64,000 nt of DNA from Spirogloea muscicola (taxonomy: Eukaryota; Streptophyta; Zygnematophyceae; Spirogloeales; Spirogloeaceae): assembly GCA_009602725.1 (NCBI GenBank), contig WELB01000139.1, positions 203,522 to 267,521 on the forward strand. The letters are read 5' to 3'. This document shows positions 3,472 through 64,000 of the stretch, in pieces; position 1 is the first letter of the stretch, and each line of letters starts with the position of its first letter. The notes under the pieces were generated by a model. It did not search any database, had not been told where the DNA came from, and was given only the letters and a program-made list of their open reading frames with translations. The position numbers and the translations under genes are program-made.

Positions 3472-6400
3472 TTAGCAGCGGATGCCGCACTGCTCCAAGC
3501 TGGGGCCGTCATACTTGGGGAGGAATGGGTCAATCTTTATCCATAGCAGGGAGAAGATGGAGGCCAGTAACACGGACCACACAACCACAATAGTTGGAGT
3601 GCGGTTGTGCCGTCCCATCAGGCCCTGAATAAGAAAAGCAAGCAGTCGCATTAAGAATGAGACTACAGATAACATGCACAGAAAAGCTCCGGGGATAATA
3701 TTCATCTTGTGACGGCCGATGCTGCAACAAGCTCTAAGATAAGTAGCTCTTGTTGGAGGTAGGGGATGACAAGAGGAGTTGTACTGTACCTTGAGGAAAG
3801 GATAGAGATGCACAATGACCCAAAGAGCAAAGAAGAGCTTCCCAAACAGGGACCCCCACGCGTTGGTCCCATTGCCCACGCCATTGTTAATAGCATTGGC
3901 TACGCCAGCCACAATGCCCACAATGTTAATAACCAGGATAGTTGTGGGAGGAATTAGTAGGGACGTCCACTTGAATATGTACAGCTCGCCAAACTCTGCA
4001 TCCTCAGCAGCCTTGGCTGTGACCGTAAAGTTTGTGTCAATGCCAGCAAGCACCTTCAAAAGTCCCTGCAGGCCAAGGAGGAAACTTATGAGCAACACTG
4101 CCCCTACACGAGAAGCATACAGGAGGCCGTCCAGGAGCCGTCCACCTGGCAAGACTTGGTGTACCACACTGACCTGCACGACAGCATACAAGTGGCTTGA
4201 GACGCCTCCAATGACCCAAAATTGCTCATTCCTCCACCACTCCTCGAGGCCAACACCACTCCACCGCATCTCGAGGATGGCCGTCACAAAGATGGAGAGG
4301 AACATGGCAATGAAGTAGATGGATGCCAGGTCGCCAATTTGCGGGATGATGAACTTGTTTGTGAGGAGGCAGATGGCTGGCAGCGTGCAGTAGGTGACGA
4401 GGGGGAAGGACGTGAATGGGTAGATGACAGTGTTGATGTAGGCAACGCGCTGGAGGAACTTGAGGCGGCCGGGGCCCCAGCCGAACCAGATGGGGCAGTA
4501 CATGGAGAGGAAGATCTCAACGGAGCCCAGCGCCCACCGCAGGACCTGATTGAGGCGGTCCGACAGGTTGATGGGCGCGGAGCCCTTGAACGCCGCTCGT
4601 GGCGGGATGCAGTAGATGCTGCGCCAGCCGCGGACGTGCATCTTGAAGCCCGTGAGGATGTCCTCTGTCACGGAGCCATAGATCCACCCCACCTCCTTAC
4701 CCCAGTCTGTCTTCTCCTCGTATCCGCACGAAATCACATGGATTGCCTCCTTGAGAATGGAGCTGGGATTGCCGGCGCCCACACTGCCGCCTTCCTCCTT
4801 GAAGGTCGACAGCACAAAGACAGGCGACTGTCCAAAGCGCTTCTCAAACCTCCGCATGGTCATCAGGCTGTCTGTCTCGCCGTCCCCACCAACTGCAATG
4901 CTCTTGTTGGGATTGGTCAATGGATGCCATGTGGTGGACTGGGACTACTCCTCGGCTCAGTCAAGCCCTCAGGATTGGCTCAAAAGTGACATGTCATAGT
5001 GGCGTGCAATGAGAGCAGCACTCACCACTGTGGGCATCCTCAAGGTAGTGCAATGGGAGGTTGCCGGCATCCTTCTGGTTGTTCCTCTGCTTCTTCGCCT
5101 CCTTGCCGCCCTTGCCAAACTTGGGTGGCTTCAGCGGCTTGGGGGCGACCTTCTTGCGGGGATTTCCACAGCAGCATAAAGTCAAGCAGCAGCTGGTAAG
5201 GCAGCCCCGAGATTTCCGCTTAAGCGCCGGCGGATCGTAAGCATACAGAGCCTGCCGCCGGAAGCAGCAGCCAGTCCCGACGTAAACAGGCCCCTGGATG
5301 CCATCCAACCCTCTCAGATTGATCTGCACATACATAGGAGCCACTCATGGTATCAGATAGCGAGCACCAGAAATAGTGGGCTGAAGTCAGCAGATGCATC
5401 CGACCAGCTTTGCAGCTGCGACGTGTTCAACGAGCATTGATCACATGGAGCTTACACCATTTCGAATTTATTTCATATAAAAACAATTACTAGACCCAGA
5501 ACAACAATTAGAACTCCCGTCTTTACTTAAGACTCGGTCATAGACAAGTTGTGGAGTACTCACATCGAAGAAGACTGTATTGTGATTGGCATAGCGATCG
5601 GAGCGATCAATGCCGTCAAAACGTTGGGGAAATTGGACGTAGCAAACTTTCTTCCCCAGAGCTGGATCCATCATGAAGCACATTGCCTCTCGCAGCGCCT
5701 TGCAGTTGTTCACATAATGGTCGCAATCCAAGTTGAGGATGTACGGCGCGTTTGTGAGGACAGCCGACACTCGAACCTGAGCAAGCGTGTGACATAATGT
5801 ATGTCAGGCATTGCTTTGCGACATGGTAACATGGCCGGTGTCTTTTATGATGACGGGCAAGGCATAAGAATGTGAATTGCTGACAGCTTGTCGTTGTCAG
5901 TTTAGAATGCATAGGAGTCAATGACAGAAGAGCGGCTCAAGCGCCGCGTTATTGAAGTCCGCCGGTGGTATACGGTGTGCTCTGCGAACTTACAAGCGAA
6001 TTCATGGCTCCTGCCTTCTTGTGGTGATTATACCCTGGCCGCTTCTCACGTGATACATACACCAGCCGGGGTAGCGCCAAGCCATCGGTGTCGTGACCTC
6101 CACTGGCACCCAAGAAGACCTGCGCCAGCGAGTCAGCGTTAGAAGGCAATCGCAATGGATGCATGCGCATGATGAGGTACTTGCATGCGGCCAGCATGCC
6201 ACAGGACACACTGACAGCTGACAGATGACATGGCTTGTCTTGTCACCTGGATCATGCCGGGGTGGTCGCGAGTGTTATTTCCTGGCCAAGGTGTGCCATC
6301 CTGCATAGTCCACCCGTCCTCGGGTACCTTCGAGGCCTTGGCCACAAGCGCATTGAGACGCACCTTCCACTCTTCATACTCCCTCTGCCAACGTGAGGGA

Positions 6401-51333: not shown

Positions 51334-52822
51334 TCACAGGAGAATCTTGCGAGAAGAAGCGCCAGCGTGCTGCCCAGCACGTCTAGTGGTGGTTTTGGTG
51401 GTGCCAAAGCGCGAGAACTTGCAGTCGGTCGCCAGGAGGCCGGATGTGAGGTAGTCCTCGGGTTCGCCGTCGAGGTAGCCATTGCCGTCGGGGCCGGCGA
51501 CCTGCCAGACCTGGAGCAGCGGGCTCCACTCGCGCACGTATGCAAAGTGGCGATCCTTCTGGTCGGCCCGGAACGTCTGGCCGAGCACGCCGTGGGGGTT
51601 GGACGACAGGCCCACGGCTGACACCATGTCCACGGAGAAGTGCACGTATGCATCTGCCGCAGTGCGCAGGTCGGGGACCTCGGGCCGCAGCTTGAGCACC
51701 AGGTCTGCGACGCCCACGACGGAGAGCTCGTAGCGGTCGACGTCGTCGTCGCCGTCCAGGCCGTGGCCAAGGAAGGTGAGCGCCACTGCTGCATCGCGAG
51801 TCACGAAGCGCTCGCCCTCGGCGAGGCGCACGGCGCGGCCGTCGACGTGGATTGAGTGCATGTAGCCTGCGCCGCGCTCGGGCTCGGCGCCGCCTCGCGC
51901 CGCCAGGACGACAGTGTGGTTGTCGGACAGCACACCGAGCTGCTTGATCCACGAGTACGTGGTGCGGCCTTCAACGCGGCCATCCAGATGCATGTTCACC
52001 TGCAGCCTCTCGTCCGTCACCATGCAGTAGTCGTTTCCGGGCGCGCCTGCAGGAGAGCAAGCAGGACGCGGCAACCAGTCAGCCACATGTTCTTTCGTCG
52101 TCGCGCAGATTATCAATAATCTCAGGCAGCTCAAATCACGTCTGTGCGTTTCCATGAATTTGTAAGCATGTATGATGTTGGTGAAGTGCTCCAAATGACA
52201 GGCCGAGCAGGACGCCAGGTTGCAGCACTGCACATAGAGAGCGTATTGGTGCGTAGAGCTCACCAGTGAAGTCGAAAGCGACAGAGTCGGCGCCGGTGAA
52301 GTGGGGGTCGCCCTTGATGCCGGCACCCTTGCACTTGGTGGAGTCCAGAGACGCGGGCTTGAGGCAGAATGGCCCGACGTTGTACTGCTGCTCCCTGTTA
52401 CAGTTGCCGCTGGAGTCCTGAATGTTGTCACCCGTTGTATCGCCGTTGTTGCACGAGCCCACGACGGAGCACGAGGAGCCGGCGGGCGCGGACACCAGCT
52501 TGACGAAGCAGCCCTGGAACTTGGGCAGGAACGGTGCCAGAAAGTCGAAGAGGACCTCGAAGTAGCCATTGGAGTCCGTGGTGGCGGTGTAGACGGTGGA
52601 GGTCTTGGCGCCGTTGACGAGGCAGTAGGACTGCACGGTGGCGCCCTTGACGTAGGCGTCGCCCTGGCTGGCGTTGTACACGCCCGTCCAGCAGGTGTTG
52701 CGGAAGACGACGCCGGAGCCGTACCAGGTGGCGGTGGCGGGCGCGGCGCCCAGCGCCAGGACCAGCGCCGCGGCCAGCAGCAGCGCGGCGGCGGCGTTCG
52801 GGGCGACGGTGGTGGCGGCCAT
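51334..52822 (-). CDS. Secreted Ole e 1-like/Root_cap two-domain protein, copy 1
   Basis: Exons 52822-52264 and 52046-51334 join in phase 1 (423 aa). Order: Ala/Leu-rich signal peptide (to about residue 33); Pollen Ole e 1-like domain with NTCW, VKGATVQSYC, TTDSNGYFEV and GCFVKLVSAP; a Cys-rich linker; then a Root_cap domain from GDPHFTGADSVAFDF through DYCMVTDERLQVNMHLDG, GVLGQTFRADQ and TDCKFSRF. In land plants both families are secreted, wall-associated proteins, so an extracellular role is likely; the biochemical function is unknown. Oddity: the first Cys of the CxxC in the Ole e 1 part is Arg here (VVFRNTCW), unlike copies 2 and 3. It is the most divergent member and lies about 4.7 kb from the next copy. 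Confidence 0.88.
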
Positions 52823-53219
52823 GGCGGGCTTCGCGGCTGTGCTGCAGCTGCGGGCCGGGGTGGGCTGGGGGGGGCTGGCGGGGGAGCTGGTCTGGTGTTT
52901 GGGGGGCGAGGGGGGGGGGGGGCTTATCTATTGGGGCCCCACCGGCCCGCCAGCAGCGCCAGGGTCCCTGCCAGCCGGGCCGGATCACGCTGGGCAGGGT
53001 GTACTAGCACCAAGCCCCGGGCCCGGGCAGCAGGATCTCGTCCGATTTGCTGCGTCGCCCCTGGACGTTCCCGGAAGACGACGCGCGGGGGCGGGACAGC
53101 CCCCTGGCTCTGCCGTAGCCCCTGGCTGCCATTGGCCGCCGCTGCTGGCGCCAGGGGGCTGGCTGGGAGTGCAAGGCTCCACGACCACGCTCCTTGCTTT
53201 TTGCTTGATTGTTCCTTTT
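52823..53219. promoter_or_regulatory. GC-rich 5' flank of copy 1
   Basis: Contains a G-run of about 14 at 52909-52922 and GC-rich sequence with parts shared with the flanks of copies 2 and 3 (GCCCCTGGC, GACGACGCG). It must include the promoter, but I can point to no defined element. Confidence 0.4.
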
Positions 53220-53890
53220 GGGCGCCTTCTCTCTACGGGCTGGCCAGTCAATTTGGAAACGCTTTTCTTGGGCTGGCCCACAGCCATTGCCTCACATCGA
53301 CATCTGTTTCTTTCCTTGTTGGCAATAAGACTATGGACGGGCTTTCGTTGGTGGCAGAAGGGCTTAAGATCTGCCGTTCAGTATCGGACAAACGATTAGC
53401 GACTTCTACTTGCTGGCCCGTCGTCAGTGGGCGGGTCGGCGTAGCAGCGGGTATGTACATTCTACGGATGTGCTTGCCTCGATACTCGGCCACTCAGCCC
53501 CTCCATCAATCAGAAGAGGCTCTATGGCTGCTGCCTCCGGGTCTAGGCGGAGTGCCATTTTCCCGGCTGCGAGTTACTCGGACTTGCTGCTGCTCACCTG
53601 TGGGTACTAAGCTTTCCTTTGCGTCGTCTCGTGTCTAGCTGTGTAGCTTTCCTTTTCGGCACCTTGTTTGGCTCTTTGGATTTTGTCCATTCTGTTTTGG
53701 GCTGGCTTTGCCAGCCCCTCTTCTCTATGGGCGAGCAATTTTTTTCCTGCTTTGCAGCAGGCCTCTCAGCGTCACTTCGATCCTGCTTCTACTGCTGTTT
53801 GAAAGAGAAGTTGTTCTTTTACATGGGACGTTGGCTGAGAAAGGCCAGCCCGAGAATCGTTGACAAGGTCCGCAGGGGCCGGAGAGCACC
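53220..53890 (+). repeat. Cluster of interspersed repeat units
   Basis: Hairpin near 53276 (GGGCTGGCCCACAGCC), a fuller unit 53450-53760 with SGSRRSAIFPAASYSDLLLL in one frame and a GGGTACTAAG stop segment, followed by CCTTTTCGGCACC and GGGCTGGCTTTGCCAGCCCC near 53699, and a reversed hairpin at about 53830-53850. Confidence 0.7.
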
Positions 53891-55559
53891 AATCAAACTG
53901 CTGGGCAATTGGCTATGACGAATGAGTGCTCAATGACCCCTACTCTACAGCCGCAGGTCGAAGTAGCTAGCTGCTCAAAAGTGGCGCCACGTCAAAAAGC
54001 AGAAGCAGCAGCTGAAATGCGGCTTCCCACAGATGCACGGCAAGTGCCTGGGTGCGCAGGAGCGAGACTGAGAGACGCATTTGGCACACTAAGTCAGTGA
54101 CCTGGCGCATTAAGGCCGGGCTTCTCGCCCTGCTGCCTTGACGCTTGTGACGCAAATGGGCGGGGTGACGAAGGGTGCTCAGTAGTCATCCTCCCTTCTC
54201 TCGGCATAGAGCCATGATGCCCGGGACGACGCTACTGCTGCGGGTAGGTCGGTTGCTCAGGACAAAATTGAAGCCGGAGAGTCTGCCTCGGCACAAATGG
54301 TGGCACTCAAAAAAAAAAAAGTTGGATTGACCAAGCTTTCGGCCGTTGCAGCAGCTCATTCTTCCATGGCCAGCAGGACGTACTTCATATTTCACGCCAA
54401 CAGTCCCAAGTCCTCACGCACCACAATCGTCTAGAGTGCTTGCCAGCAGAGCCAGCGGGGTCCTTCCCTGTGTGACACTCTCTGCAGCTCTCGACGATAT
54501 GGTGCACCTTGAGCCGCGTCCTTGGCGATTGGTGTAAGAGTGATAACCCAAGCACGCAAGCGCAGTCTAAGGACGGGGTATGGGAAAGGGACTGACAATG
54601 GCCTCAAAGCAGCTATGCAGAGCCACTCTTTGGTGGCTCGATACATTTATGTCGACGATGATCTGGAAGCTCGAGGGGCTGCCCAACATCTCATCATCCT
54701 CCAGAAGTGAAATCATACACTTTTCAAAGACTCTGTCTTTGCGCAGTGGGACACTCATGTTCCCAGGATGTTCGAAAAGCAGCTCACCCTGGATAGTCAA
54801 CGCAACTTGCGTCTGTGGAACTTCTGGTGACCGGCTTCCTGTGTCAGGCTTTCAGCCGCATGGGTCCGGGTAGAGGGTTCAAGGATTCAAATACAACGCT
54901 TTTGTAAGCCGTGTGCAATGTCTCTATGCGCGGCACGTGCAGTCACGCTCATTGGGATACATCATCGAGAATGTGGAGCACGTCGAAAACAGTCCATAGC
55001 CAGGTTTGATTTGAATACACTCTGTTCGGTCCAATTGCCAAGCTAGCTGCAGCATTTCTTGGTTCCCTGGCCTGATCGCAACTTACGAGTTGCTCTTGCA
55101 GCTGTGTATAGACCGTCAACGCTGATTTCGGCACCAATTTGCTTATATGGCATCAGAACCTGGCCGCAAAGGCATCCCACTTGACCAGAGGTTCAACAGG
55201 GATCATGCTTCTCTCAGCCAGGAAGGCAGACTAGTGTGCGTTACTTTGGCCGAGAAGACTTCTCTCTTGCAATGAGATCTTGGCAATCCGGGACTCACAT
55301 TTGCGACTGCTCTTCCTAGATGTGGATCGGACTAGAGTTGATCTGCACTGATGTTGACTATGTATGGACTGAGATTGAGTCGACCTGGACTGGACCCAAG
55401 TGAGACTGATCAAGGACTGCATATCATTGTATTGCTCTTGTTGTGGACGGGCTCTTCATTAACCCCGTCAACGGCCACGATAGCTTTAGTACAACTGGCT
55501 TAGCTCAATGAGCGTGAACGTCAACGACCACTAGCAGAAGAATTGAAGCTATTCCAAAG
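53891..55559. other. Intergenic, nothing firm
   Basis: A minus-strand frame near 53990-54080 reads MRLSVSLLRTQALAVHL, a fragment of the recurring repeat motif. The rest, including an A-run at 54310-54320, shows no gene. Confidence 0.45.
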
Positions 55560-56215
55560 GAAGAAAGACTCTTCCAGTAGAGGGCGATGGCTGTGATTGG
55601 CCAGCCCAGGAAAAAGGACAACATGCGAAGGCGCCAGAAAGCAGCGCTGGAGCATACAGCGACTTAAGTGGCCACTCTTCCAAGGGGCAGGGGCTGTGAA
55701 AAGCCGGCCAAGAAAGAATGAACAAGGTCCAAAAAGCCGAAAACTTCTCAGCTATGCACGAGACTACAATGGGAGCTTAAGACCCCCGAGTAAGCAGGCG
55801 CAAGTCGGAGTGACTTGCAGCTAGAATAGAGCCACCCCGAGGTGACCCAGAAGTAGCAGCCAAAGCGCGGCCTGCCCGCAAGTGCACTGCGTGAGCCAGT
55901 GTACGTTGGATGGAAATGGATAGCCGCATGCGGAAGAACTGGGCAGCGGAGCCGCGAAGGATAGAGTCCACAGCAGGAAGGAAGGAAGCAGTGAGGGCTG
56001 TGGACAGTCAGCCTATTTAATGATGAACAAGGCCCAAATGAGCCAGAAAGCGAAGCGACCAGCGGTCACCTCCGTCGCCATTGCCAGTGCCAGCAGCACG
56101 CTGTCTCGTGCCACAATTCCGCTTTGCGTCGTTCTCCTTGTCCATTCCTTTGGGCTGGCCTCTTCACAGCCACCAGTCAATTTGGCCGCGCAATTCTCCG
56201 CTTGAAGAAGCAGAC
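55560..56215. repeat. Interspersed repeats in both orientations
   Basis: Reversed hairpins near 55580-55607, 55690-55710 and 55985-56012. A minus-strand frame at 55920-55780 reads VHLRAGRALAATSGS and SDLRLLTRGS then TAA. A forward hairpin (GGGCTGGCCTCTTCACAGCC) lies near 56152 with the tail ACCAGTCAATTTGGCCG, shared with the copy at 40341. Confidence 0.7.
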
Positions 56216-57502
56216 GTGGATTATCCGCCTGGTGAGGTGCCCAGTCTCCGGGCATCTGTCAATTCAACTTCATACGTCAAGTATATAACATGACAGAATG
56301 AGTCCCTCATGGCATCGTCTCTTCAAGGACAGTTCCCTCTTGGGCATTCCCAAGCATTCCTCAGAACCCCTACTAGCGGTCTCTTAGTAACGGCCTCTCA
56401 ATGACGGTCCACCCCTAACGGAAGCCTTGACAATGTGTCATACTGCGCCACTTCCTGCGGCAGCTTCACGCTGTCTCGCATCATAGATCTCGGTTTGGCC
56501 CGCCCAGTGGTGGCAAGCCTATTCAACCGTCTGTCAAGAGCACTTTTCCACGGCATTGATGTTCCGATGTGTGACATTGTCACAAATACAGCGCAGTGAG
56601 CAGCTTCTGCAGCCTTCTGCGAAATCCCAGGTGCTTATCCACGAGCGGGCCCCTCCTTCATTCCACAAAAGTACAGCGTTCCGTCCATCAGGGTAAGGTG
56701 GTGGAGGACGTGGCGTTCTGCCGCTTCAGCAGCTTTGACGAGCCCCCAACAGTGACCCTTGCTGTTGAGCTGGTCACACAGCAGAAACGTTGCTCCCACT
56801 CCACCAGTCACGGCTCCTCTGCATCTGCATCCTAAACCTCGGAGGATGTCGTGCATGAAAAGGGCCTTGCCACTCTTGGTGAGGTGTTATGACTTTTGCT
56901 GAAAAATCTTGAATTGAAGTTCTTACGTCATGTACTACGTTGTTGAGTATCCACAACAGACTCTATCCATGGACCCGGACACGATTGATGTACATGTGTG
57001 CACGACCACAAGTTCGTGTGCAATGAGCCGAACACTGACATCCGACCTTGTACCAGGAAATTGCAGGAAGAGGCTTCCTTACAAATGGTGGACAAATTGG
57101 CCACATAGAATGTGGTAATAATGTATGATTACTTGGACAATACAGAAAAGCTTTGAAGGGGGGGTATACACAGAAGTCGAGGCCTGCAGTGCAGATGGCG
57201 TACTGTACATCGAATACGATACAGAGTGCTGGGTAACGAAATGTTGTGATAGCACAGCCCTACTAAAGAGGTGCGAACACAGAAGTCGACAAAGTCAGTG
57301 CACTGCCTGTGGCAATGGCAGAAGTCTCACTTTGCGTGCTACTGCAGCTGGATGGTGATGGGAGAACAGTGCCACCCGTCACTGTGCTCCGGTCAGCACC
57401 GGGCTGCTAGGAAGCAGGTGGGCAGCTTGCTTGACATGATGCATACGATGGCCTTTGCGCTTTTCGAGTGAGTCGGTTGGCGCACGGCCAAGTCAATGCA
57501 AC
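56216..57502. other. Intergenic, nothing recognised
   Basis: AT-richer DNA with no exon seen; the right end is the 3' flank of copy 2 of the array. Confidence 0.5.
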
Positions 57503-58967
57503 TTAGACGAGCATCTTGCGAGAGGTCACAGTGGCATGCTGGCCAGCGTGGTGGGTAGCAGCTTTGGCAGCTCCAAAGCGCGAGAACTTGCAGTCGACAG
57601 CAAGGAGATTGGAGGTGGAGTAGTCCTCAGGAACACCGTCGAGGTAGCCGTAGCCATTGGGGCCGGCGACCTGCCAGACCTGGAGCAGCGGGCTCCACTC
57701 GCGCACATATGCAAAGTGGCGGTCCTTCTGGTTTGCCCGGAATGTCTGGCCAAGCACGCCGTGGGGGTTGGATGACAGTCCAACGGCAGACACCATGTTC
57801 ACAGAGAAATGCACGTACGCGTCCACGTCAGTGCGCAGGTCGGGGACCTCGGGCCGCAATTTGAGCACCAGATCTACGACGCCCACGACGGAGACCTCGT
57901 AGCGGTCCACATCGTCATCGCCGTCCAGGCCGTGGCCGAGGAAGGTGAGCGCCAATGCTGCGTCGCGAGTCACGAAGCGCTCGCCCACGGCGAGGCGCAC
58001 GGCGCGGCCGTCGACGTGGATGGATTGCATGTAGCCTGCGCCGCGCTCGGGCTCGGCGCCGCCTCGCGCTGCCAGGACGACAGTGTGGCCGTCGGACAGC
58101 ACACCGAGCTGCTTGATCCACGAGTACGTGTTGGGGCCCTCGACACGGCCGTCCAGGTGCATATTCACCTGCAGCCTCTCGTCCGTCACCATACAGTAGT
58201 CATTGCCAGGCGTCCCTGCAGGAGAGTAAGCAGGACAGGGCAACCAGTCAGAGGTTTGCTTACACCACATGGTCCGTGAAGGCATGAAATGTCGTCTCAG
58301 CAGATGAAACAATTTCTGTATGTCTCCATGGATGTTTGTGCACACATGCCGCACTACTGCCACTGAATAACAGGCCGAGTGTACGCGACATTGCAGCACT
58401 GCAGAAAAAGAGGGTCAGTGAGTGGCTCTCACCGGTAAAATCGAAAGCAATGGAGTCTGCGCCGGTAAAGTGGGGGTCGCCCTTGACGCTGGCACCCTTG
58501 CACTTGGTGGTATCTAGCGCTGTGGGCTTAAGGCAGAAGGGCCCGACGCTGTACTGCTGCTCCTTGTTGCAGTTACCGTTGGAGTCCTGGATCGTGTTGC
58601 CCGTGTCGCCGTTGCTGCACGAGCCTATGACGGAGCAGGACGAGCCGGAGGGCGCGGACACCAGCTTGACGAAGCAGCCCTGGAACTTGGGCAGGAACGG
58701 CGCCAGAAAGTCGAAGAGGACCTCGAAGTAGCCATTGGAGTCCGTGGTGGCGGTGTAGGTGGTGGCGGTCTTGGCGCCGTCGACGAGGCAGTAGGACTGC
58801 ACCGTGGCGCCCTTGACGTAGGCGTCGCCCTGGCTGGCGTTGTACGCGCCCGTCCAGCAGGTGTTGCAGAAGACGACGCCGGAGCCGAACCAGGTCGCGG
58901 CGGCGGGCGCGGCGCCCAGCGCCAGCACCAGCGCCGCGGCCAGCAGCAGCGCGGCGGCGGCGGCCAT
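57503..58967 (-). CDS. Secreted Ole e 1-like/Root_cap two-domain protein, copy 2
   Basis: Exons 58967-58433 and 58215-57503, phase 1 junction, 415 aa. Signal peptide to about residue 25 (MAAAAALLLAAALVLALG). The Ole e 1-like domain has the full CNTC pair. The linker contains CNKEQQYSVGPFC, and the Root_cap domain opens with KGDPHFTGADSIAFDF. The intron again falls just after FDFTG, as in every copy, which marks common descent. The end reads SRKMLV. Differences from copies 3 and 4 are scattered, for example GERFVTRDAALAL and EVSVVGVVDLV. The frame is intact with no sign of decay. Confidence 0.9.
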
Positions 58968-59460
58968 GGCGGCGGGCTGGGAAGGTGGCGCGCGAGCTGG
59001 GCCGGGCTGGGCTGGCCTGGCCGGGCTGCCGGGACGGGAGCTGGCTGCTGGTCGATGGGAGCTGGGGAGGGTGGTTTGGCGCCCTTTCAAGGCCGCCGGG
59101 CCCCGCCGCCTGCCCCCTGGCCCCCTGCCTGCTGCGCCGAGGGGCCCTGGCCAGGCGCGCACAGCCCCCTGCGAGCAGCAGCGGCGCGGCCTGGCCCGGA
59201 CCCGCTCCCGCAAGACGACACGCCGCCGAGATCCGGCTCGTGCACGTACCGCCCTGCCGCAGCCCCTGGCTCTGCTGGGCCCCCCCGGGCCCCGGCCCCG
59301 CCGCATGTGCCCCGCCTGGCGTCTGTTCAGTTTGCACTGAACTCTGCCTGAGCAATGTATTGGCTTGAATTGGCCTCTCATTCATTTCATGCGCCCCGCG
59401 CGCCTTCTCTCAGAGCGGCACGTTCTGGGCAAGATGGGCGGGCGCAGGACCTCACCTAGC
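58968..59460. promoter_or_regulatory. 5' flank of copy 2, homologous to that of copy 3
   Basis: GC-rich and aligns with 61795-62220 upstream of copy 3 along most of its length, except for one inserted block at 59329-59412. Promoter elements must lie here, but I recognise none. Confidence 0.5.
59329..59412. mobile_element. ~85-bp insertion upstream of copy 2
   Basis: The flanks read GCGTCTGTTC on the left and GCGGCACGTTCTGGGCAAG on the right. In copy 3 these flanks are joined directly (62161-62190), so the block is extra here. The same sequence, with a few changes, occurs at 40973-41056. It is too short to code, so it is a small non-autonomous element or a fragment of one. Confidence 0.75.
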
Positions 59461-60350
59461 TCCTCGACCCTTCAACCCGTGTAGCCGGAGGAAGCAGGCT
59501 CAAGGGGTTCAGGGTCGTAACCCCATGGCCGTAATAGCTTATGATACTGCCAACGGCGACTTGGCTCGGAGGTGCTTCGGAGACGGTGAGAGTGGGGTCC
59601 AGCAGGATGAAGATGTTTCGGACTGCTTGCATTGCTACCATTACATCGACCAAAGCCAGCTTGCTCATGTTTTGAAGCACTCACTACTACTTTGTCCTCC
59701 TGATTACCACTGCCTCATAAGTGCTCTCCTTTATATCTCATCAACACCAATTCTGCAGACAAGCCGACAAGAATCTCCAGCGTCTTGAATTGAAGCTTGA
59801 AAGTGGGGTGGGGTACAAGGGGGGGTGGGGGTACAACAATACCATCCCAACCTGCAAGTCGTAGCCCGCTTCAACTCTTAGACAAAGATGACGACACTGA
59901 GCTACCCAGATGATATGTACGACTTCGATCTGGGGTATCATGAAGACCTGTGGGCAGAGGCTTGAACCAGAACACATTGGGGCCGAGATAGGTGATGGCA
60001 CATATCCTCCACACAGGGATGAGACCTGGGTCCGAAGGACAAGGCTGGCAGCATAGGTGACTGATCGTGAAGGCATCAGGATACAACGGCAGATCTCGAG
60101 CAGCCAAAGAGTGATAGATTGACCGGCGCTACTGGGGCTAAGGGGCTCACATCAAGACACAAAGAATCATTCATACACACTAAGTCGACACTAGATAATA
60201 AACCTTGCAGCTGCAGCCAGACGCTGACAGGAGGACGGTGCAGGCGGGCACTGTGCTCCGGTCCGCGCGAGGCTACTGGGTGGCAGGCTGGCACTGTGGA
60301 GCAGCCTAGTAAGCGTACAGCGCTATCAAAAGTAGCTAATTGCATGACAG
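59461..60350. repeat. Tandemly duplicated intergenic block, copy A
   Basis: Aligns with 62222-63113 almost base for base (for example ATGGCCGTAATAGCTTATGA at 59525 and a one-base variant at 62283). It includes the G-rich tract and the 3' flank of copy 3. Neither block has a convincing gene. Confidence 0.85.
59804..59831 (+). repeat. G-rich repeat, possible quadruplex
   Basis: GGGGTGGGGTACAAGG followed by GGGGGTGGGGG; four or more G-runs within 28 bases. A matching tract sits in the duplicate block at 62566. Confidence 0.7.
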
Positions 60351-61794
60351 CTAGATGAGCATCTTGCGGGAGAAGCCATTGGCATGCTTGCCAGCGCGGT
60401 GGGCGGCGGTCTCGCCGAATCGCGAAAATTTGCAGTCGCTGGCGAGGAGGCCAGAGGTGAGGTAGTCCTCGGGAGCACCGTCGAGGTAACCGTTGCCATC
60501 TGGGCCGGCGACCTGCCAGACCTGGAGCAGCGGGCTCCACTCACGCACATACGCAAAGTGGCGGTCCTTTTGGTCCGCACGGAATGTCTGACCGAGCACG
60601 CCGTGAGGGTTGGACGACAGGCCCACGGCGGATACCATGTCCACGGAGAAGTGCACGTACGCGTCTGCCTCGGTGCGCAGCTCAGGGACCTCGGGCCGCA
60701 GCTTGAGCACCAGCGCAGCAACGCCCAAGATGGAGAGCTCATAACGGTCTACGTCGTCATCACCGTCCAGGCCATGGCCGAGGAAGGTGAGCGCTACTGC
60801 TGCGTCGCGCGTCACAAAGCGCTCGCCCTCGGCGAGGCGCACGGCGCGGCCGTCGATGTCGATGGAGTGCATGTAGCCTGTGCCCCGCTCGGGCTCGGCA
60901 CCGCCACGTGCTGCCAGGACGACAGTATGGCTACCGGAGAGCACGCCGAGCTGCTTGATCCAAGAGTACGTGTTGGAGCCCTCGATGCGGCCGTCCAGGT
61001 GCATGTTCACCTGCAGCCTCTCGTCCGTCACCATGCAGTAATCTTTACCGGGCGAGCCTGAGAAGAGGAGGCACAGGATATCGACCAATCAGATTTCTGC
61101 TGTCTCAGGGTCCAAGCAGGTACAAATTAAGAATGTCTGATGAAATACGCCTGTACTTCCACATGTACATACCTGCAAATGCTATCCAATCGCCGAAAAG
61201 GCAGGCGAGCCAAGTTGCAGCATTGCTCCAAAAGAGAGGGGCCGGTGTGAGCAGCTCACCAGTGAAGTCGAAGGCGACGGAGTCGGCGCCGGTGAAGTGG
61301 GGGTCGCCCTTGACGCCGGCGCCCTTGCACTTGGTGGAGTCCAGCGCTGCGGGCTTGAGGCAGAAGGGCCCGACGCTGTACTGCTGCTCCTTGTTGCAGT
61401 TGCCGCTGGAGTCCTGGATGTTGTCGCCCGTGTCGCCGTTGTTGCACGTGCCCACGACGGAGCAGGACGAGCCGGAGGGCGCGGACACCAGCTTGACGAA
61501 GCAGCCCTGGAACTTGGGCAGGAACGGCGCCAGGAAGTCGAAGAGGACCTCGAAGTAGCCGTTGGAGTCCGTTGTGGCGGTGTAGGAGGTGGCGGTCTTG
61601 GCGCCGTTGACGAGGCAGTAGGACTGCACCGTGGCGCCCTTGACGTAGGCGTCGCCCTGGCTGGCGTTGTACGCGCCCGTCCAGCAGGTGTTGCAGAAGA
61701 CGACGCCGGAGCCGTACCAGGTGGCGGCGGCGGGCGCGGCGCCCAGCGCCAGCGCCAGCGCCGCGGCCAGCAGCAGCGGCGCGGCGGCGGCCAT
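60351..61794 (-). CDS. Secreted Ole e 1-like/Root_cap two-domain protein, copy 3
   Basis: Exons 61794-61260 and 61057-60351, phase 1 junction, 413 aa. Signal peptide with likely cleavage near residue 24 (GAAPAAA). Ole e 1-like domain about residues 28-112 with Cys 34, 37, 60, 98 and 111. Cys-rich linker to about 160 (Cys 117, 133, 145, 156). Root_cap domain about 163-400, opening with GDPHFTGAD at 163. Diagnostic C-terminal Root_cap features are GVLGQTFRADQ and SDCKFSRF. The end reads NGFSRKMLI. Together with its flanks it forms one unit of a ~2.76-kb tandem duplication with copy 4. Substrate or partner unknown. Confidence 0.92.
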
Positions 61795-62221
61795 GGGGGC
61801 GGGCTGAGAAGGTAGCGCGCGAGCTGGGCCGGGCTGGGCTGGCCTGGCCGGGCTACCGGGACGGGCAGCTGCTGGTCGATGGGAGCTGGGAGAGGGGGGG
61901 TTTGGCGCCCTTTTCTAGGCCGCCGGGCCCCCGCCTGCCCCCTGGCCCCCTGCCTGCTGCGCCAAGGGCGCCTGGCCAGGCGCGCACAGCGCCCTGCGGG
62001 CAGCATGGACGGGGCCGCCGTCCTGCACCGCGGCCTGGCTCGACCCGCTCCCGCAAGACGACGCGCCACCAAGATCCGGCTCTTGCACGTGCCGCCATGC
62101 CAGAGCCCCTGGCTCTGCTGGCTTTGCCCGGGGCCAGGCCCCGCCGCATGTGCCTGCCCGGCGTCTGTTCGGGGCGGCACGTTCTGGGCAAGATGGGCGG
62201 GCGCAGGACCTCGCCCAGCTT
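61795..62221. promoter_or_regulatory. 5' flank of copy 3
   Basis: GC-rich sequence homologous to the flank of copy 2, but without the ~85-bp insertion. No defined element recognised. Confidence 0.45.
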
Positions 62222-63113
62222 CTCGACCCTTTAACCCGTGTAGCCGGAGGAAGCAGGCTCAAGGGTTCAGGGTCGTAACACCATGGCCGTGATAGCTTAT
62301 GATACTGCCAACGGAGACTTGGCTTGGAGTTGCTTCGGAGACGGTGACAGTGGGGTCCAGCAGGATGAATATGCTTCGGACTGCTTGCATTGCTACCATG
62401 CTTACATCGACCAAAGCCAGCTTGCTCATGTCTTGAAGGACTCTCTACTACTTTGTCCTCCTGGATACGACTGCCTCATAAGTGCTCTCCTATTATATCT
62501 CATCAACACCAATCTTCTGCAGACGAGCTGACAAGAATCTGCAGCCTCTGAGCTTGAAGCTTGAAGGGGGGGGTGGGGTACAAGGGGGGGTGGGGTACGA
62601 CATTACCATCTCAACCTGCAAGTCTTAGCCTGCTTCAACTCTTAGACAACAAACATGACAACACTGAGCTACCCAGATGAAATGTACGACTTCGATGTAA
62701 AATACCATGAAGACCCTTGGGCAGAGGAGGTTTGAACCAGAAAACGTTGGGGCCGAGATGGGCGATGGCACATCCTACCTCGACACAGGGATGAGACCTG
62801 GGTCCCAAAGGACAAGGCTGGCAGCACAGGTGACTGATTGTGAAGGCATCAGAATGCAATGGCGGACCTCCAGCAGCCAGAAGGTGTTTGATCCAATGGC
62901 GCTACTGGGCCTAAGGGAGCTCACATCAAGACACAAAGAATCACTCATACACCACTTAAGTCTACACTAAATAAGTGCAGCTGTAGCCAGACGCTGACAG
63001 GAGGACGGTGCAGGCGGGCACTGTGCTCCGGTCCGCGCGAGGCTACTGGGCGGCATTCTGGCAATGTGAACAGCCTAGCAGGCGTGCAGCGCCATCAAAA
63101 GTGGCTAATCTCG
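62222..63113. repeat. Tandemly duplicated intergenic block, copy B
   Basis: Duplicate of 59461-60350, offset about 2.76 kb, with small indels and base changes. Confidence 0.85.
62566..62597 (+). repeat. G-rich repeat, possible quadruplex
   Basis: Two units of a G7-8 run, TGGGG and TAC in tandem; counterpart of the tract at 59804-59831, with longer G-runs. Confidence 0.7.
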
Positions 63114-63826
63114 TCAGAGCGAGATGAGCATCTTGCGGGAGAAGCCATTGGCATGCTTGCCAGCGCGGTGGGCGGCGGTCTCGCCGAATCGCGAAAACTT
63201 GCAGTCGCTGGCGAGGAGGCCAGAGGTGAGGTAGTCCTCGGGAGCACCGTCGAGGTAACCGTCGCCATCCGGGCCAGCGACCTGCCAGACCTGGAGCAGC
63301 GGGCTCCACTCACGCACGTACGCAAAGTGGCGGTCCTTTTGGTCCGCACGGAATGTCTGACCGAGCACGCCGTGAGGGTTGGACGACAGGCCCATGGCGG
63401 ACACCATGTCCACGGAGAAGTGTACGTACGCGTCTGCCTCGGTGCGCAGCTCAGGGACCTCGGGCCGCAGCTTGAGCACCAACGCAGCAACGCCCAAGAT
63501 GGAGAGCTCATAGCGGTCCACATCGTCATCGCCGTCCAGGCCGTGGCCGAGGAAGGTGAGCGCCAATGCTGCGTCGCGAGTCAAGAACCGCTCGCCCTCG
63601 GCGAGGCGCACGGCGCGGCCGTCGACGTGGATGGAGTGCATGTAGCCTGCGCCGCGCTCGGGCTCGGCGCCACCTCGCGCCGCCAGGATGACACTGTGGC
63701 CGTCGGACAGCACACCGAGCTGCTTGATCCACGAGTACGTGTTGGGACCCTCGACACGGCCGTCCAGGTGCATATTCACCTGCAGCCTCTCGTCCGTCAC
63801 CATGCAGTAATCTTTACCGGGCGAGC
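63114..63826 (-). CDS. Secreted Ole e 1-like/Root_cap protein, copy 4 (second exon only)
   Basis: Only exon 2 lies in the window; the acceptor is at 63827-63828, and the first exon, with the signal peptide and Ole e 1-like domain, must start beyond 64000. The exon encodes the Root_cap part from DYCMVTDERLQVNMHLDG to SRKMLISL. The 3' half and the intron side match copy 3, while 63511 to about 63790 matches copy 2, so the exon is a mosaic. The frame is intact. The end is two residues longer than copy 3 (MLISL against MLI). Confidence 0.88.
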
Positions 63827-64000
63827 CTGAGGAGAGCAGGCACAGGACATCGACCCGTCAGATTTCTGCTGTCTCAGGGTCCGAGCAGTTACTAATGCCG
63901 AGTCTCTGATGAAATACGCCTGTACTTCTACATGTACATACCTGCACATGTAGAAGTAAAGAGCAGGCAAGCCAAGTTGCGGACATTGCTCCAAAAGAGA

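What the first reader, a model, noticed from the sequence alone, without database searches (positions are those of the whole stretch)
51334..64000. Tandem array of an Ole e 1-like plus Root_cap fusion protein
At least four minus-strand genes share one architecture: signal peptide, Pollen Ole e 1-like domain with conserved Cys, Cys-rich linker, then a Root_cap domain. In land plants I know these two domains from separate secreted families tied to pollen, root cap and cell wall. Finding them as one protein, amplified in tandem, in what looks like a streptophyte alga suggests an ancestral or lineage-specific extracellular matrix protein. The shared intron just after FDFTG shows the fusion predates the array.
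Basis: partly seen in the sequence, partly recalled or inferred. Interest (0 to 1): 0.75.

Follow-up and report, generated by a model that had tools for sequence, protein, structure and literature searches.

The report
Tandem algal cell-wall fusion genes
A green alga close to land plants carries a repeated set of genes for a probably secreted protein that joins a pollen-allergen-like domain to a root-cap domain, and the root-cap half looks like a distant relative of animal mucus-protein domains that can cut themselves.

Summary
Three complete minus-strand genes, and one cut by the window edge, encode signal peptide, Ole e 1 domain (Pfam E 1e-9 to 1e-12), Cys-rich stretch, then a Root_cap ("DPH") domain whose Pfam scores (26.5-29.1 bits) straddle the cut-off of 27. 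The fusion is not peculiar to this array: all 34 Ole e 1 matches found in the 153 Mb genome lie beside a DPH hit, and five paralogues hold both domains in one open frame. The array exists on three contigs and is older than their divergence. A streptophyte is supported; Spirogloea muscicola is likely, not proved.

[quoted passage not shown] 1.9e-8 with a cleaner set; both above their shuffles). The GDPR subclass alone does not pass this test, and Pfam's VWD model finds nothing. All 19 class A sequences keep GDPH, the motif animal VWD domains cut autocatalytically. I read the protein as a secreted wall or mucilage protein, possibly self-processing. Structure, cleavage, secretion and expression are untested. 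My searches found neither the fusion nor the VWD link in print.

The parts
52264..52822 (-). Copy 1, exon 1: signal-type N-terminus, Ole e 1 domain (52439-52714 by Pfam), Cys-rich stretch, start of DPH domain
51334..52046 (-). Copy 1, exon 2: rest of DPH (Root_cap) domain and tail; 423 aa in all
58433..58967 (-). Copy 2, exon 1 (Ole e 1 at 58599-58880)
57503..58215 (-). Copy 2, exon 2; 415 aa in all
   Evidence: Root_cap 26.5 bits, just below the cut-off
61260..61794 (-). Copy 3, exon 1 (Ole e 1 at 61426-61707; nine Cys before GDPHF)
60351..61057 (-). Copy 3, exon 2; 413 aa in all
63114..63826 (-). Copy 4, exon 2 only; its exon 1 lies outside the window and is cut by a single-N join
52047..52263 (-). 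Copy 1 intron, 217 nt, GT-AG, phase 1
   Evidence: predicted; no RNA data
58216..58432 (-). Copy 2 intron, 217 nt, GT-AG, phase 1
   Evidence: predicted; no RNA data
61058..61259 (-). Copy 3 intron, 202 nt, GT-AG, phase 1
   Evidence: predicted; no RNA data
52298..52312 (-). GDPHF motif of copy 1
58467..58481 (-). GDPHF motif of copy 2
61294..61308 (-). GDPHF motif of copy 3

Best explanation
Each gene encodes a secreted two-module extracellular-matrix protein. SHOWN by sequence: a hydrophobic N-terminus of signal-peptide type, an Ole e 1/PAC domain and a DPH (Root_cap) domain, joined by a predicted intron inside the DPH domain and under purifying selection; a tandem array older than the divergence of three sister contigs. 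SUPPORTED by profile comparison: the DPH domain is a remote homologue of VWD-type domains. INFERRED: the Ole e 1/PAC part binds wall or mucilage polysaccharide and the VWD-like part gives assembly or stability, as VWD modules do in animal mucus proteins. INFERRED, weaker (about 0.35): copies with intact GDPH cut themselves between Asp and Pro in the secretory pathway, the halves staying tied by a disulfide between the Cys upstream of GDPH and the invariant Cys of the DPH domain. Copy number is high because the product is bulk wall or mucilage material.
For: Pfam Ole e 1 in 3 of 3 and Root_cap in 4 of 4. Both domains in one open frame in five paralogues. All 34 PF01190 matches beside a DPH hit. 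hhalign of nine DPH domains against 28 VWD domains: Prob 96.1, E 3.5e-9, score 63.2, 140 columns; 152 block shuffles reach at most 36.6. A cleaner set of 24 script-spliced or single-frame DPH domains: E 1.9e-8, score 59.1, against at most 40.4 in 104 shuffles. Without the GDPH...FDFTG segment 35.5 against at most 25.6 in 152 shuffles. A second tool run with eight VWD sequences: E 3.8e-8. GDPHF in 19 of 19 class A sequences. GDPH self-cleavage and its need for Asp and His: PMC10880436 (parts 1-4 of 7 read). PAC domain assumed to bind pectin and O-glycans: abstract of PMC7177597 in the listing.
Against: Pfam's VWD model gives no match to any DPH sequence at E <= 10. The GDPR subclass alone (five single-frame sequences) scores 27.3 while its shuffles reach 28.4; subsets with E about 0.0015-0.0017 have no control and are not significant. 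Block shuffles reached E 2e-5, so these E-values run optimistic. The clean set aligns confidently over only 82 columns, the N-terminal half; the 140-column result rests partly on hand-joined sequences. The Gln that helps cleavage in FCGBP is Thr here. Both structure models failed (pLDDT 31 and 35). Exon 1 has dN/dS 0.87 between copy 3 and C11, so Ole e 1 constraint is loose at that distance. No RNA, protein or localisation data.
Confidence: 0.66

Rival explanations
1. The fusion and secretion are real, but the DPH domain is an unrelated beta-sandwich with a GDPH-like turn by convergence; the protein is an oligomerising stress protein, as the authors of PMC10796529 suggest for DPH proteins by analogy with small heat-shock proteins.
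For: No Pfam VWD match; GDPR subclass alone not above its shuffles; cold-responsive expression of wheat DPR genes and the sHSP analogy in PMC10796529 (parts 1-4 of 5 read).
Against: The signal persists without the GDPH segment (35.5 against at most 25.6 in 152 shuffles), and extended alignments place GVLGQT on GLLGN.
Confidence: 0.2
2. The two domains are separate neighbouring genes or the prediction joins unrelated exons.
For: No RNA data; the spliced models are predictions.
Against: Exon 1 ends inside the DPH domain; five paralogues have both domains in one open frame; 34 of 34 Ole e 1 matches adjoin a DPH hit on the same strand; low dN/dS in both exons.
Confidence: 0.02
3. The three sister clusters are haplotypes or an assembly artefact, not copies from an old genome triplication.
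For: The contigs are unnamed and the assembly history is unknown; a single-N join interrupts copy 4.
Against: dS between counterparts is 0.07-0.26, large for alleles; five exon-2 groups each have members on all three contigs; other loci also come in threes (C46/C47/C66, C11/C26/C18). A triplication is on record for Spirogloea muscicola (passages of PMC7994812, PMC9065682).
Confidence: 0.06

Closest known systems
DPH-domain / Root_cap (PF06830) proteins, including the Ancylonema DUF3494-DPH ice-binding protein (PMC10796529)
   Same: Same C-terminal domain beginning at DPH, secreted, N-terminal partner domain variable, large families in streptophytes
   Different: Partner here is Ole e 1 rather than DUF3494 or a Cys/Pro/Gly-rich stretch; an Ole e 1 partner is not mentioned in that paper (term search)
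Ole e 1 / PAC-domain wall proteins (PF01190; PMC7177597)
   Same: Ole e 1 domain over the Pfam cut-off behind a signal-type N-terminus
   Different: Followed by a DPH domain; root cap is not mentioned in PMC7177597 (term search). Closest solved structure is Pla l 1, only E 0.032
VWD domains of mucins, VWF and FCGBP (PF00094; PMC10880436)
   Same: GDPH start, collinear profile match, extracellular setting
   Different: No Pfam VWD match, no C8/TIL/E domains detected, longer domain (about 250 aa), GVLGQT in place of GLLGNY or GLCGN (the last recalled)
Inter-alpha-inhibitor heavy-chain C-terminal domain (PF06668)
   Same: GDPH and VWD-like predicted topology per PMC10880436; sub-threshold Pfam matches in 3 of 9 DPH sequences; heavy chains are ester-linked to polysaccharide at their C termini (passage of PMC7170535)
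   Different: Below the cut-off; no match in class A (the window's class); no evidence of covalent linkage in algae

Membership tests
Pollen_Ole_e_1 (PF01190) | Score over the curated cut-off of 23 bits | tested here: met
   38.7, 47.5, 48.5 bits in 3 of 3 complete copies
Pollen_Ole_e_1 (PF01190) | Conserved Cys of the domain | tested here: inconclusive
   11 Cys in 16 of 17 class A copies; copy 1 has Arg for the first Ole e 1 Cys. Disulfides unknown
Root_cap / DPH domain (PF06830) | Score over the curated cut-off of 27 bits | tested here: inconclusive
   29.0, 26.5, 27.3, 29.1 bits: 3 of 4 over, one under; none of the 36 genome-search matches lies on C139
Root_cap / DPH domain (PF06830) | C-terminal domain of about 280 residues beginning with DPH (definition in PMC10796529) | tested here: met
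   DPH to C-terminus is about 250 residues in copy 3; full-length match to other Root_cap domains
VWD (PF00094) | Score over the Pfam cut-off of 22.9 bits | tested here: not met
   No VWD match at E <= 10 in any DPH sequence scanned; bacterial control scored 74.1. So not filed as VWD
VWD (PF00094) | Profile-level homology to VWD | tested here: met
   E 3.5e-9 and 1.9e-8, above all shuffles; but the GDPR class alone is not
VWD (PF00094) | VWD beta-sandwich fold | tested here: inconclusive
   Both models useless; no fold search made. PMC10796529 reports a predicted beta sandwich for a DPH domain
Self-cleaving GDPH domains (FCGBP type) | GDPH with Asp and His intact | tested here: met
   19 of 19 class A sequences
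Self-cleaving GDPH domains (FCGBP type) | Cleavage between Asp and Pro | not testable with these tools
   Needs expressed protein
ITI_HC_C (PF06668) | Score over the cut-off of 27 bits | tested here: not met
   3 of 9 DPH sequences match, best 18.5 bits, E 0.0016, in a hand-joined sequence that mixes two loci

The most novel reading that the evidence does not exclude
The streptophyte Root_cap/DPH domain is the plant branch of the VWD / inter-alpha-inhibitor heavy-chain superfamily. In the GDPH-bearing algal fusion, self-cleavage at Asp-Pro activates the Asp so that the Ole e 1 half becomes ester-linked to wall or mucilage polysaccharide, as heavy chains are linked to chondroitin sulfate and hyaluronan; the GDPR classes, land-plant-like, have lost this chemistry.
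Probability: 0.1. Interest if true: 0.92.

Novelty: new variant of a known kind. Interest (0 to 1): 0.64.

Why it matters
Root_cap proteins are abundant in streptophytes (over 2,100 hits in 199 genera in PMC10796529) and have no known mechanism. A link to VWD-type domains would give them a fold family, a probable role in extracellular assembly, and a plain test: does the GDPH class cut itself while the GDPR class does not? Their fusion with Ole e 1 in a close relative of land plants would tie two unexplained secreted plant families to one old wall or mucilage protein.

Tried and rejected
Structure route: exon 2 (A2) and exon 1 (A3) of the window copies were folded; mean pLDDT 30.8 and 34.7, so no fold search was made. 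VWD in the own genome: none, but no control genome rang either. DPH relatives in bacteria and archaea and in viruses: 27 and 46 stretches matched patterns, none confirmed. Rubisco large subunit for naming the host: no match. The FCGBP hit (E 3.3e-5) was not taken as proof: it sums five repeats, none significant alone; the first profile gave only 0.17. A read-through or mis-joined gene was rejected because of the single-frame paralogues.

Counts that rest on part of a list: the 87 DPH hit clusters were made from all 105 places, 38 of 99 and 20 of 72; the rest I judged by eye to be further exons of listed loci. Some clusters are fragments. All 34 PF01190 places were entered. Of the 87, 34 have a Pfam Ole e 1 upstream, 4 more show one only with the copy-3 query, 49 show none; a looser proximity count printed 35. 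Left out: C18 (its model stops at 246 aa). Kept: C55_292504, although no start codon was found (an X stands near the start). Two of 30 VWD loci (L067, L074) gave no stop-free frame with GDPH and were dropped; L070 is truncated and was kept.

Papers: PMC10796529 parts 1-4 of 5 and PMC10880436 parts 1-4 of 7 were read; PMC7177597, PMC5073881, PMC5446989, PMC7994812, PMC9065682, PMC7170535, PMC12420790 and PMC7289721 only by term passages (the last two hits were in reference lists); all others were seen as listings.
Full report
What is there. Spliced models give three complete minus-strand genes of 423, 415 and 413 aa and exon 2 of a fourth. Each complete copy starts with a hydrophobic signal-type segment (no signal-peptide program was run), continues with an Ole e 1 domain (PF01190, E 1.3e-9, 2.4e-12, 1.2e-12) and ends with a Root_cap region (PF06830, 29.0, 26.5, 27.3 and, for copy 4, 29.1 bits against a cut-off of 27). 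Copy 3 has nine Cys before GDPHF and two after it. The introns (217, 217, 202 nt, GT-AG, phase 1) follow FDFTG, about 17 residues inside the DPH domain, so exon 1 alone would end inside a domain. Exon 1 of copy 4 lies beyond the window and stops at a single N, behind which an inverted exon-2 fragment follows; whether that copy is complete cannot be told.

How sure is the Root_cap label. By Pfam alone it is marginal, and none of the 36 PF06830 matches of the genome search lies on C139, C40 or C55. The whole domain is clearer: a Root_cap domain from another locus (38.9 bits) matches copy 3 at 44% identity, E 5.4e-41.

The genome. The window is part of a 153 Mb assembly of 471 unnamed contigs. 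Clusters like this one sit on C139, C40 and C55. Seventeen gene models of this class were built on them (16 with a start codon), plus two in the diverged C11/C26 set; the third member, C18, broke early. Exon-2 distances sort the 17 into five groups, each with members on all three contigs, so the tandem copies predate the divergence of the contigs. dS between counterparts is 0.07-0.26. A cellulose synthase lies at 3478-4944 (PF03552, 598.3 bits; best PDB match 8vht, 595.2 bits, against 48.8 for the closest of the weakest group listed); that these are plant-type enzymes is recalled. A genome triplication is on record for the zygnematophyte Spirogloea muscicola (passages). That species is my inference; no sequence was matched to it.

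How old and how general is the fusion. All 34 PF01190 matches at E <= 0.001 have a DPH hit on the same strand beside them. The search reads exon by exon, so Ole e 1 genes split by introns could be missed. Five paralogues, two on C66, one on C46, two on C47, have both domains in one open frame. The C11/C26/C18 set has both domains at about 39% (Ole e 1) and 55% (DPH) identity with the intron at the same place. So the fusion predates the array. Of 87 DPH hit clusters, 49 show no Ole e 1, among them intronless genes on C83, C164 and C279 that I could not read.

What the DPH domain is. A profile of nine DPH domains was aligned with 28 VWD domains from the phylum of a Myxococcus record. hhalign gave Prob 96.1, E 3.5e-9, score 63.2 over 140 columns from GDPH to GVLGQT; a tool run with eight VWD sequences gave Prob 95.0, E 3.8e-8. 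Some of the nine were joined by hand, so I repeated it with 24 script-spliced or single-frame sequences: Prob 95.4, E 1.9e-8, score 59.1, now confident over 82 columns of the N-terminal half; the rest aligns collinearly, GVLGQT on GLLGN, only when the alignment is forced outwards. Controls: 152 block shuffles of the first profile mean 23.8, sd 4.6, maximum 36.6; 152 column shuffles maximum 22.2; 104 block shuffles of the clean profile mean 25.5, sd 4.5, maximum 40.4. Without GDPH...FDFTG the score was 35.5 (E 9.6e-5) against mean 16.5, sd 2.9, maximum 25.6 in 152 shuffles. Class A alone: 46.1 against at most 39.9; the GDPR class alone: 27.3 against at most 28.4, so not distinguishable. Reversed DPH gave E 0.25, Ole e 1 against VWD 0.41. 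Shuffles reached E 2e-5, so the nominal E-values are optimistic. The DPH profile's first PDB match is FCGBP (summed over repeats), while the VWD profile finds FCGBP, mucins and VWF. ITI_HC_C has sub-threshold matches in 3 of 9 DPH sequences. Pfam's VWD model matches none. I conclude probable remote homology, not membership.

Mechanism. PMC10880436 reports that GDPH in VWD domains is cut between Asp and Pro autocatalytically, that changing Asp or His prevents it, that changing a nearby Gln has a partial effect, and that a disulfide can keep the pieces together; it names inter-alpha-inhibitor heavy chains as VWD-like in predicted topology. All 19 class A sequences have GDPHF and an upstream Cys; the Gln position is Thr by my alignment. 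Other classes read GDPR, GNPR, GSPR, or N/D-DPH and by those data would not be expected to cut in the same way. The PAC domain is assumed to bind pectic polysaccharides and O-glycans (abstract of PMC7177597, listing). A maize root-cap glycine-rich protein accumulates in mucilage (title in the reference list of PMC10796529). Hence the wall or mucilage reading. Cleavage is a prediction; ester linkage to polysaccharide, by analogy with heavy chains (passage of PMC7170535), is speculation.

Concerted evolution. Between copies of different exon-2 groups, exon 1 differs by 6.7% of nucleotides on the same contig (38 pairs) and 7.7% across contigs (76 pairs), exon 2 by 13.9% and 13.8%. Shuffling contig labels within groups gave so low an exon-1 difference in 0 of 5000 cases. 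The Ole e 1 exon is thus homogenised within arrays, most simply by gene conversion; the DPH exon is not.

In print. Searches for root cap with Ole e 1, with VWD terms and with GDPH or heavy-chain terms showed no description of this fusion or of the VWD link. Searches found no paper; one search listed 15 of 43, six of seven with one opened by passages, all 13 with four opened. The library lacks most subscription journals. DPH domains, their restriction to streptophytes and one other fusion (DUF3494) are known from PMC10796529.

Noticed in passing
window 3478-4944, minus strand: Part of a cellulose synthase gene (PF03552, 598 bits), about 46 kb from the array.
   Followed up: partly
clusters on C139, C40, C55 (window copies 1-3 included): Exon 1 is homogenised within each array while exon 2 follows the old groups (0 of 5000 permutations): concerted evolution of one half of a gene.
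   Followed up: yes
L013:336 (C139:267735), just beyond the window end: A single N joins copy 4's exon 1 to an inverted exon-2 fragment: a scaffold join or a rearrangement.
   Followed up: partly
window 52264-52822 (copy 1): Copy 1 has Arg for the first Ole e 1 Cys (VVFRNTC, VVFCNTC or VVFCNNC in the other 16).
   Followed up: no
   Followed up: no
window 59103-63068: Non-coding flanks of copies 2-4 repeat with 2.76-2.87 kb spacing, mostly 80-95% alike, one at 70%: whole units were duplicated.
   Followed up: no
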